DNA from: Firmicutes bacterium HGW-Firmicutes-11
Lineage (GTDB): Bacteria > Bacillota > Clostridia > Peptostreptococcales > Anaerovoracaceae
Direction of reading: 5' to 3'
NCBI GenBank assembly: GCA_002840285.1
Contig: PHAE01000001.1
Span: forward strand, 1 to 64,000
DNA: 64,000 nucleotides
Positions 45,957-46,849 of this stretch are shown in pieces (the stretch's first letter is position 1; each line of letters begins with the position of its first letter). The notes under the pieces are model-generated. The model did no database searches and was not told the origin of the DNA. It saw only the letters and a program-made list of their open reading frames with translations. The position numbers were made by a program, and so were the translations under genes.

Positions 45957-45970
45957 TTTGTTCCTTTCAT

Positions 45971-46042
45971 TGGCGGGGAGCCCGGGAGTTTCACCCGGCT
46001 GCATAGATTTAGAGTCTATGCGATCCATCCGATCCGTCCCCC
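45971..46042 (-). tRNA. pylT: tRNA-Pyl (CUA)
   Basis: Minus strand GGGGGACGGATCGGATGGATCGCATAGACTCTAAATCTATGCAGCCGGGTGAAACTCCCGGGCTCCCCGCCA: anticodon loop CUCUAAA, compact D and variable loops, T arm CCGGG-TGAAACT-CCCGG, encoded CCA; resembles bacterial tRNA-Pyl from memory. Confidence 0.92.
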
Positions 46043-46045
46043 GTA

Positions 46046-46849
46046 TCAGCGACACAATTCGCCAAGCATGACTGCGACTCCAATGGGGAGCCGATCATGA
46101 ACGATTCGGTCTTTTCTTAGTTCCAGTGTCTCATCTGTGAGCGATATCGGCAATCCGGGAGCTGCGATCCAAACATCCGGATGAAGCATCTCGTCTGTAA
46201 GCCATCCGCTTTCATCGGTTGCATCGAAGACCAAGGGGTATTCTTTGATCTCTTCTGGCGAACCAAGAATCTTGTATTTGGTGAAAAATTTGGTTTTTTG
46301 ACTGTTTTTATCGTACAGGACCGGAAACGCACCTTTTGCTTCGAGCAACTTTAACGCCTCTTTGCCGACTCTGCCGCAGCCTAAAATCAAAACTTCCTTT
46401 CCGGACAATCCTCCTGTAGCAGTCTCTAGAATTTGGATGTAACCTTTTGCCGTAGCTTTATCGTTTTCTGTCATTCGATTGCGCATTCGATCGATGCCAA
46501 GGAATCGATCGTCATCTGCCAGAAAGATCCAATCAACACCTTTGGTTCCCGCTTCATGAATGCCGGCCACGTCGGTGGCTTCTGTAACAAAGATCGAAAA
46601 GCCCAGATAGCTGATGATCCCTGCAACAGCATCGGCAAATCCGGTTATCACACCGAGGCCAGACGTCACTGGCACAGCTGCAATGACTGTCCCCATTGCC
46701 TTATTTTCAAAGTCGGAGAGCGACAAACCGTTGGACGATGTGGAGATGTCCTGCAGGGATGCGCCGATCTTTCGCTCCAGTTCGATATCGAAACGCAGGA
46801 GCTCTGCGCCTGCCGAAACCGCTAAATCTTGTTCTTTTAGCCTAGTCAT
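46046..46849 (-). CDS. pylD: Pyrrolysine biosynthesis dehydrogenase PylD
   Basis: VLILGCGRVGKEALKLLEAKGAFPVLYD; first ~100 aa PylD-like; pyl context. Confidence 0.92.
   Translation of the reverse strand: MTRLKEQDLAVSAGAELLRFDIELERKIGASLQDISTSSNGLSLSDFENKAMGTVIAAVPVTSGLGVITGFADAVAGIISYLGFSIFVTEATDVAGIHEAGTKGVDWIFLADDDRFLGIDRMRNRMTENDKATAKGYIQILETATGGLSGKEVLILGCGRVGKEALKLLEAKGAFPVLYDKNSQKTKFFTKYKILGSPEEIKEYPLVFDATDESGWLTDEMLHPDVWIAAPGLPISLTDETLELRKDRIVHDRLPIGVAVMLGELCR

What the first reader, a model, noticed from the sequence alone, without database searches (positions are those of the whole stretch)
45957..46055. tRNA-Pyl gene sits between pylD and pylB and is masked by a spurious PylB N-terminus
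A 72-nt minus-strand sequence (46042-45971) folds as a bacterial-type tRNA-Pyl with CUA anticodon and encoded CCA. It starts 3 nt after the pylD stop and ends 14 nt before the real pylB ATG. The ORF track reads it as PylB residues 1-33. Close embedding in a polycistron implies the tRNA must be cut out of mRNA, coupling its dose to operon transcription. The acceptor stem appears to have an A-C apposition and a G-U pair.
Basis: partly seen in the sequence, partly recalled or inferred. Interest (0 to 1): 0.8.

Follow-up and report, generated by a model that had tools for sequence, protein, structure and literature searches.

The report
Pyrrolysine tRNA gene inside pyl operon
[quoted passage not shown] the same placement recurs across related gut and sediment bacteria, so it is a conserved layout and not a one-off oddity.

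Summary
A 72-nt tRNA-Pyl (CUA anticodon, encoded CCA) lies at 46042-45971 on the minus strand. It begins 3 nt after the pylD stop and ends 14 nt before the pylB ATG at 45956. ARAGORN and a covariance model built here both find it, it is the only pylT in the genome, and across 39 relatives its cloverleaf shows compensatory changes. The 33-residue PylB extension is an artefact: at least 7 of the best 120 database PylB hits begin with translated tRNA-Pyl.

No promoter-like site lies within 2.3 kb upstream, so excision from the operon transcript is likely but unproven. The layout is not unique: pylT sits directly behind pylD in 39 of 58 pyl loci with a located pylT, including several other Clostridia genera with pylD-pylT-pylB. 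It is ancestral or long maintained in that clade (5 changes on the tree against 12-19 when shuffled).

Two features are peculiar to this genome. The acceptor stem has a real A6-C67 mismatch where close relatives pair A-U, and it folds poorly in silico. No pylC was found, although relatives carry it right after pylB. Separately, one genus in the family appears to decode pyrrolysine with no pylB, pylC or pylD.

The parts
45971..46042 (-). pylT, tRNA-Pyl: 72 nt, CUA anticodon, 7-nt acceptor strands with G5-U68 and A6-C67, 5-nt D-loop, 6-bp anticodon stem, 3-nt variable loop, G73, encoded CCA
   Evidence: ARAGORN; covariance model R1, 93.4 bits (the window is in the training set); alignment and pair counts with 38 relatives
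46046..46849 (-). pylD, stop TGA at 46048-46046, 3 nt before pylT
   Evidence: TIGR03911, 189.8 bits, over its cut-off
44931..45956 (-). pylB, true start ATG at 45956, 14 nt after pylT
   Evidence: TIGR03910, 458.9 bits, over its cut-off
45957..46055 (-). spurious 33-codon PylB extension (translation of 5' flank, tRNA and 3' flank) in an ORF opening at GTG 46055
   Evidence: database PylB entries P0121-P0124, P0135, P0148, P0151 begin with or carry translated tRNA-Pyl
45961..45967 (-). AAAGGAA, likely pylB ribosome-binding site in the 14-nt spacer after the CCA end
   Evidence: read directly from the sequence
46842..47165 (-). pylSn, N-terminal tRNA-binding subunit of pyrrolysyl-tRNA synthetase
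   Evidence: TIGR03912, over its cut-off
47170..47838 (-). methylamine corrinoid protein (MtbC-like)
   Evidence: TIGR02370, 183.4 bits, below its cut-off
47849..48703 (-). pylSc, catalytic subunit of pyrrolysyl-tRNA synthetase
   Evidence: TIGR02367, over its cut-off
48703..50337 (-). RamA/AcsV-like corrinoid activase
   Evidence: NF040756 and TIGR04270, sub-cut-off
50363..51292 (-). CobW-like GTPase of the cluster
   Evidence: TIGR02475, sub-cut-off; the same gene is in relatives' clusters
51435..52901 (-). mtbB, dimethylamine methyltransferase with an in-frame UAG; its terminal stop is also UAG
   Evidence: PYLIS_2 match 51785-51686; TAG=O reading; end sequence
52840..54342 (-). mttB, trimethylamine methyltransferase with an in-frame UAG
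   Evidence: PYLIS_3 match 53349-53250; TAG=O reading
54995..56353 (-). URO-D/thioredoxin-fold protein, probable MtbA-like methyltransferase upstream in the same orientation
   Evidence: PF01208
56577..57872 (+). divergent AraC-type regulator with PocR sensory domain, candidate regulator of the operon
   Evidence: PF12833, PF10114; regulatory role inferred

Best explanation
This is the organism's single pylT gene, carried inside the methylamine/pyrrolysine operon (mttB-mtbB-cobW-ramA-pylSc-corrinoid gene-pylSn-pylD-pylT-pylB). It is most likely transcribed only as part of the long operon message. RNase P then cuts 3 nt past the pylD stop, and a 3' cut or trimming frees the encoded CCA just upstream of the pylB ribosome-binding site. 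tRNA-Pyl supply therefore rises and falls with the methyltransferase messages that need it. This makes sense because UAG is also an ordinary stop here, so constitutive tRNA-Pyl would cause unwanted read-through. Shown: the gene, its neighbours, its conservation, the layout, UAG used as a stop. Inferred: co-transcription, excision, dose coupling.
For: tRNA called by two methods, with compensatory base changes in relatives. Gaps of 3 and 14 nt; no promoter-like site on that strand between pylT and 48412 and no terminator-like site between pylD and pylB. pylT follows pylD in 39 of 58 distinct loci with a located pylT, median gap 9 nt, and the trait is clade-wide (5 changes against 12-19 in 200 shuffles). 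UAG ends 22 of 83 long ORFs sampled on the contig. A divergent PocR/AraC regulator heads the cluster. Precedent for induction: a review (PMC11467909) reports that pyl expression in Acetohalobium arabaticum depends on trimethylamine.
Against: There are no RNA data. The promoter scan is a simple consensus match and could miss a promoter inside pylD. The A6-C67 mismatch predicts a poorly formed acceptor stem (the four outer canonical pairs have probability 0.33, A6-C67 zero, against about 0.99 in relatives), which raises doubt about efficient maturation. pylC was not found, so a complete pathway is not demonstrated.
Confidence: 0.8

Rival explanations
1. pylT has its own promoter within the 3' part of pylD and is made independently of the operon message.
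For: Many bacterial tRNA genes have their own promoters (general knowledge). The consensus scan cannot exclude weak or non-sigma70 promoters.
Against: No promoter-like site on that strand in pylD, pylSn or the corrinoid gene. In relatives the downstream gene and spacer change while the tight link to pylD stays, which fits read-through from pylD as the source of transcription.
Confidence: 0.12
2. The pyl system of this genome is decaying: pylC is gone and the tRNA has begun to degenerate (A6-C67), so the gene may be non-functional.
For: No pylC in a 95.85%-complete genome by family model or by close homologue. In relatives L012, L013, L017 and L031 pylC follows pylB, but here a DUF697 gene starts 12 nt after pylB. 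The mismatch is private to this genome. Long terminal branch of PylSc+PylD, 0.99.
Against: pylB, pylD, pylSn and pylSc are all intact and over family cut-offs. mtbB and mttB keep their in-frame UAG and PYLIS matches. The rest of the cloverleaf is perfect. pylC may lie on an unassembled contig.
Confidence: 0.13
3. The cloverleaf is a chance fold inside the PylB coding sequence.
For: An ORF does run through it. Folding energy alone is only 2.1 sd below shuffles.
Against: Covariation in 39 sequences. The tRNA is present with other flanking genes in relatives. PylB homology begins at the downstream ATG.
Confidence: 0.005

Closest known systems
tRNA-Pyl of Desulfitobacterium hafniense and other bacteria
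   Same: 72 nt, CUA anticodon, 6-bp anticodon stem, 3-nt CAG variable loop, short D-loop, G73 (sequence here; D. hafniense features partly from PMC3941956 and partly recalled)
   Different: A6-C67 mismatch in the acceptor stem; the gene lies between pylD and pylB instead of at the head of the cluster
Bacterial pyl clusters as described in PMC3941956 (pylTScBCDSn or pylSnScBCD)
   Same: split pylSn/pylSc, pylB, pylD and methylamine methyltransferases with UAG, all in one cluster
   Different: order pylSc-pylSn-pylD-pylT-pylB; pylC not found here; tRNA gene internal
Anaerovoracaceae and other Clostridia clusters with pylD-pylT-pylB-pylC (L012, L013, L017, L031, L044)
   Same: same pylD-pylT-pylB order with pylD-pylT gaps of 6-10 nt
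   Different: these keep pylC after pylB, and their acceptor stems have no mismatch
Escherichia coli secG-leuU type mRNA-tRNA transcripts
   Same: a tRNA encoded on a message with a protein gene and released by processing; the Mohanty and Kushner 2008 paper was seen only as a citation in PMC3985628
   Different: there, as I recall it, the tRNA is at the 3' end; here protein genes lie on both sides. Processing enzymes in this organism are unknown

Membership tests
bacterial tRNA-Pyl | CUA anticodon in a 7-nt loop with a 6-bp anticodon stem | tested here: met
bacterial tRNA-Pyl | short D-loop (5 nt), one nt between acceptor and D stems, 3-nt variable loop | tested here: met
   alignment A2
bacterial tRNA-Pyl | G73 discriminator and encoded CCA | tested here: met
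bacterial tRNA-Pyl | fully paired 7-bp acceptor stem (usual in relatives, not strictly defining) | tested here: not met
   A6-C67; 38 of 39 sequences pair at this position; canonical pair probabilities 0-0.33
bacterial tRNA-Pyl | charged with pyrrolysine by PylSc/PylSn | not testable with these tools
   pylSc and pylSn are present nearby
complete pyrrolysine cassette | pylSc and pylSn present | tested here: met
complete pyrrolysine cassette | pylB and pylD present | tested here: met
complete pyrrolysine cassette | pylC present | tested here: not met
   the weak hit in contig C47 is PurK-like, next to PurE. The genome is 95.85% complete, so absence is likely but not certain
complete pyrrolysine cassette | methyltransferase genes with in-frame UAG | tested here: met
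   PYLIS_2 and PYLIS_3 matches; TAG=O reading
mRNA-embedded tRNA released by processing | co-transcript containing pylD, tRNA and pylB | not testable with these tools
   only spacing and absence of promoter-like or terminator-like sites

The most novel reading that the evidence does not exclude
The organism keeps pylT, PylRS and UAG-containing methyltransferases but has truly lost pylC, so it cannot finish pyrrolysine itself and depends on pyrrolysine or an intermediate from neighbours. A related genus (G347, G348, G350) that lacks pylB, pylC and pylD altogether would be the end state of the same trend.
Probability: 0.2. Interest if true: 0.7.

Novelty: new member of a known kind. Interest (0 to 1): 0.4.

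Why it matters
It gives a concrete, conserved example of an amber-decoding tRNA whose dose is probably tied to the messages that need it, in organisms where UAG is still a normal stop. It also exposes a systematic annotation error: PylB and PylSn entries carry N-termini translated from tRNA-Pyl (peptides such as DRIDSKSMQPGETPG), which would mislead expression constructs and family models. The missing pylC and the pylBCD-less genus make the question of pyrrolysine sharing between cells testable.

Tried and rejected
A second pylT elsewhere: none by DNA or covariance model; the weak C52 hit is a tRNA-Ser fragment. pylC under another guise: the 17.6-bit hit in C47 is PurK-like beside PurE; no remnant in the window by tblastn. 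Reading the PylB extension as real: rejected, homology starts at the downstream ATG and the extension is the tRNA. Rfam at gathering threshold does not report pylT, a model-coverage effect and not evidence of absence. Literature searches gave no paper in the held library that I found describing pylT between pylD and pylB; only searches and text finds were done, and subscription papers are missing. ARAGORN misses some tRNA-Pyl in relatives that the model finds (L115, L121, L132, L135-L138), so the 'none' rows are partly false negatives.

Full report
Observation. The minus-strand sequence 46042-45971 reads GGGGGACGGATCGGATGGATCGCATAGACTCTAAATCTATGCAGCCGGGTGAAACTCCCGGGCTCCCCGCCA. ARAGORN calls it tRNA-Pyl with anticodon CUA. 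The pylD stop TGA occupies 46048-46046, so TAC is the only sequence between stop and tRNA. The pylB ATG is at 45956, after the 14-nt spacer atgaaaggaacaaa. The frame that opens at GTG 46055 adds 33 residues to PylB, whereas the PylB family match starts at residue 2 of the form beginning at 45956.

Is it more than chance? I aligned it with 38 tRNA-Pyl genes from related pyl loci. On the cloverleaf, 99.5% of cells are standard pairs, 13 of 22 pairs have changes on both sides, and no shuffle of 500 reaches the observed values; sliding the partners drops pairing to 29-61%. A covariance model from this alignment finds it at 93.4 bits (the window is one of the 39 training rows) and nothing else credible in the 1.93-Mb genome; the one weak second hit is a tRNA-Ser fragment. 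A DNA search also finds a single copy.

The masking artefact is general. Among 240 database proteins retrieved with PylSn and PylB as queries, six PylB and three PylSn entries carry a recognisable translation of tRNA-Pyl at the N-terminus. A seventh PylB, P0123, starts at the ATG inside the tRNA. Two frames of the tRNA can stay open, giving peptides such as DRIDSKSMQPGETPG and TLNLCSRV.

Context. Family models identify pylB, pylD, pylSn and pylSc over their cut-offs and, less strictly, the corrinoid protein, the corrinoid activase and a CobW-like GTPase. mtbB and mttB upstream have in-frame UAG and match PYLIS_2 and PYLIS_3. All genes from 56353 down to 44931 share one strand, and a divergent AraC regulator with a PocR domain begins at 56577. 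No promoter-like site lies on that strand between pylT and 48412, and no terminator-like site between pylD and pylB. Together with gaps of 3 and 14 nt this makes an operon transcript the likely source of the tRNA. It is inference.

Why couple the tRNA to the operon? UAG ends 22 of 83 long ORFs sampled on this contig, and mtbB itself also ends at UAG. UAG is thus a working stop codon, and constitutive tRNA-Pyl would be costly. A review (PMC11467909) reports that in Acetohalobium arabaticum pyl expression depends on trimethylamine, which fits.

How common is the layout? I fetched 80 pyl loci from named genomes and 45 pylT-bearing genomes among 353 of the same family. Among 65 distinct loci with both PylSc and PylD, 58 had a located pylT, and in 39 of those pylT directly follows pylD (median gap 9 nt). 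The next gene is pylB in 8, cobW in 11, pylSn in 12 and unassigned in 8. On a PylSc+PylD tree the trait needs 5 changes, against 12-19 in 200 label shuffles. The pylD-pylT-pylB rows (window, L012, L017, L031, L044, L047, L052, L066) attach near the base of the large clostridial clade, several on weakly supported branches, so this order may be ancestral there. Published descriptions that I read give pylTScBCDSn or pylSnScBCD for bacteria (PMC3941956) and 'more variable, but compact' (PMC11467909); I found no mention of an internal pylT behind pylD.

What is peculiar here. (1) A6-C67: at this position 38 of 39 sequences pair; L012 and L013 have A-U, and the spurious PylB peptides of P0122 and P0123 (GFPA instead of GLPA) imply U67 in those closer relatives too. 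In silico the acceptor stem slips, with canonical pair probabilities of 0 to 0.33 against about 0.99 in relatives. An A+-C wobble may be tolerated; this is untested. (2) pylC: the family model and a close homologue find none in the genome, while 40 of 45 pylT-bearing family members have it. In L012, L013, L017 and L031 it follows pylB; here a DUF697 membrane protein starts 12 nt after pylB. The window's PylSc+PylD branch is also long (0.99). Decay or relocation are both open.

Verdict. The gene is real, ordinary in kind, and sits in a conserved but apparently under-described layout. The processing model is plausible and testable. The most interesting lead found on the way is the loss of pyrrolysine synthesis genes in pyl-decoding genomes.

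Noticed in passing
L136, L137, L138 (genomes G347, G348, G350, one genus): pylSc-pylT-pylSn with mtbB (UAG seen in L136 and L138) and corrinoid activase, but no credible pylB, pylC or pylD in any of the three genomes (77, 97 and 94% complete): apparent pyrrolysine decoding without synthesis.
   Followed up: partly
window 44931-44918 and whole genome: pylC missing where relatives carry it; a DUF697 protein gene follows pylB after 12 nt.
   Followed up: partly
window 51435-51437: mtbB, which contains a pyrrolysine UAG, also ends at UAG; read-through would add 16 residues, the first being the UAG itself.
   Followed up: no
L045 9872-9905: the pylD frame runs into tRNA-Pyl and stops at the TAA in its anticodon loop, so the coding sequence overlaps the tRNA by about 34 nt.
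   Followed up: no
L017, L019, L023, L036-L039, just 3' of pylT: GC-rich, apparently inverted-repeat sequence between pylT and the next gene where the spacer is long; might protect the downstream message after tRNA excision. Seen by eye, not folded.
   Followed up: no
same family, 353 genomes: tRNA-Pyl in 45 of 353 family genomes but only 3 of 392 sampled across the class (one of the 3 being this genome), so the family is a hotspot for pyrrolysine use.
   Followed up: no
database proteins P0024, P0026, P0118: PylSn entries with N-termini translated from tRNA-Pyl; P0024 stands for 115 member sequences.
   Followed up: partly
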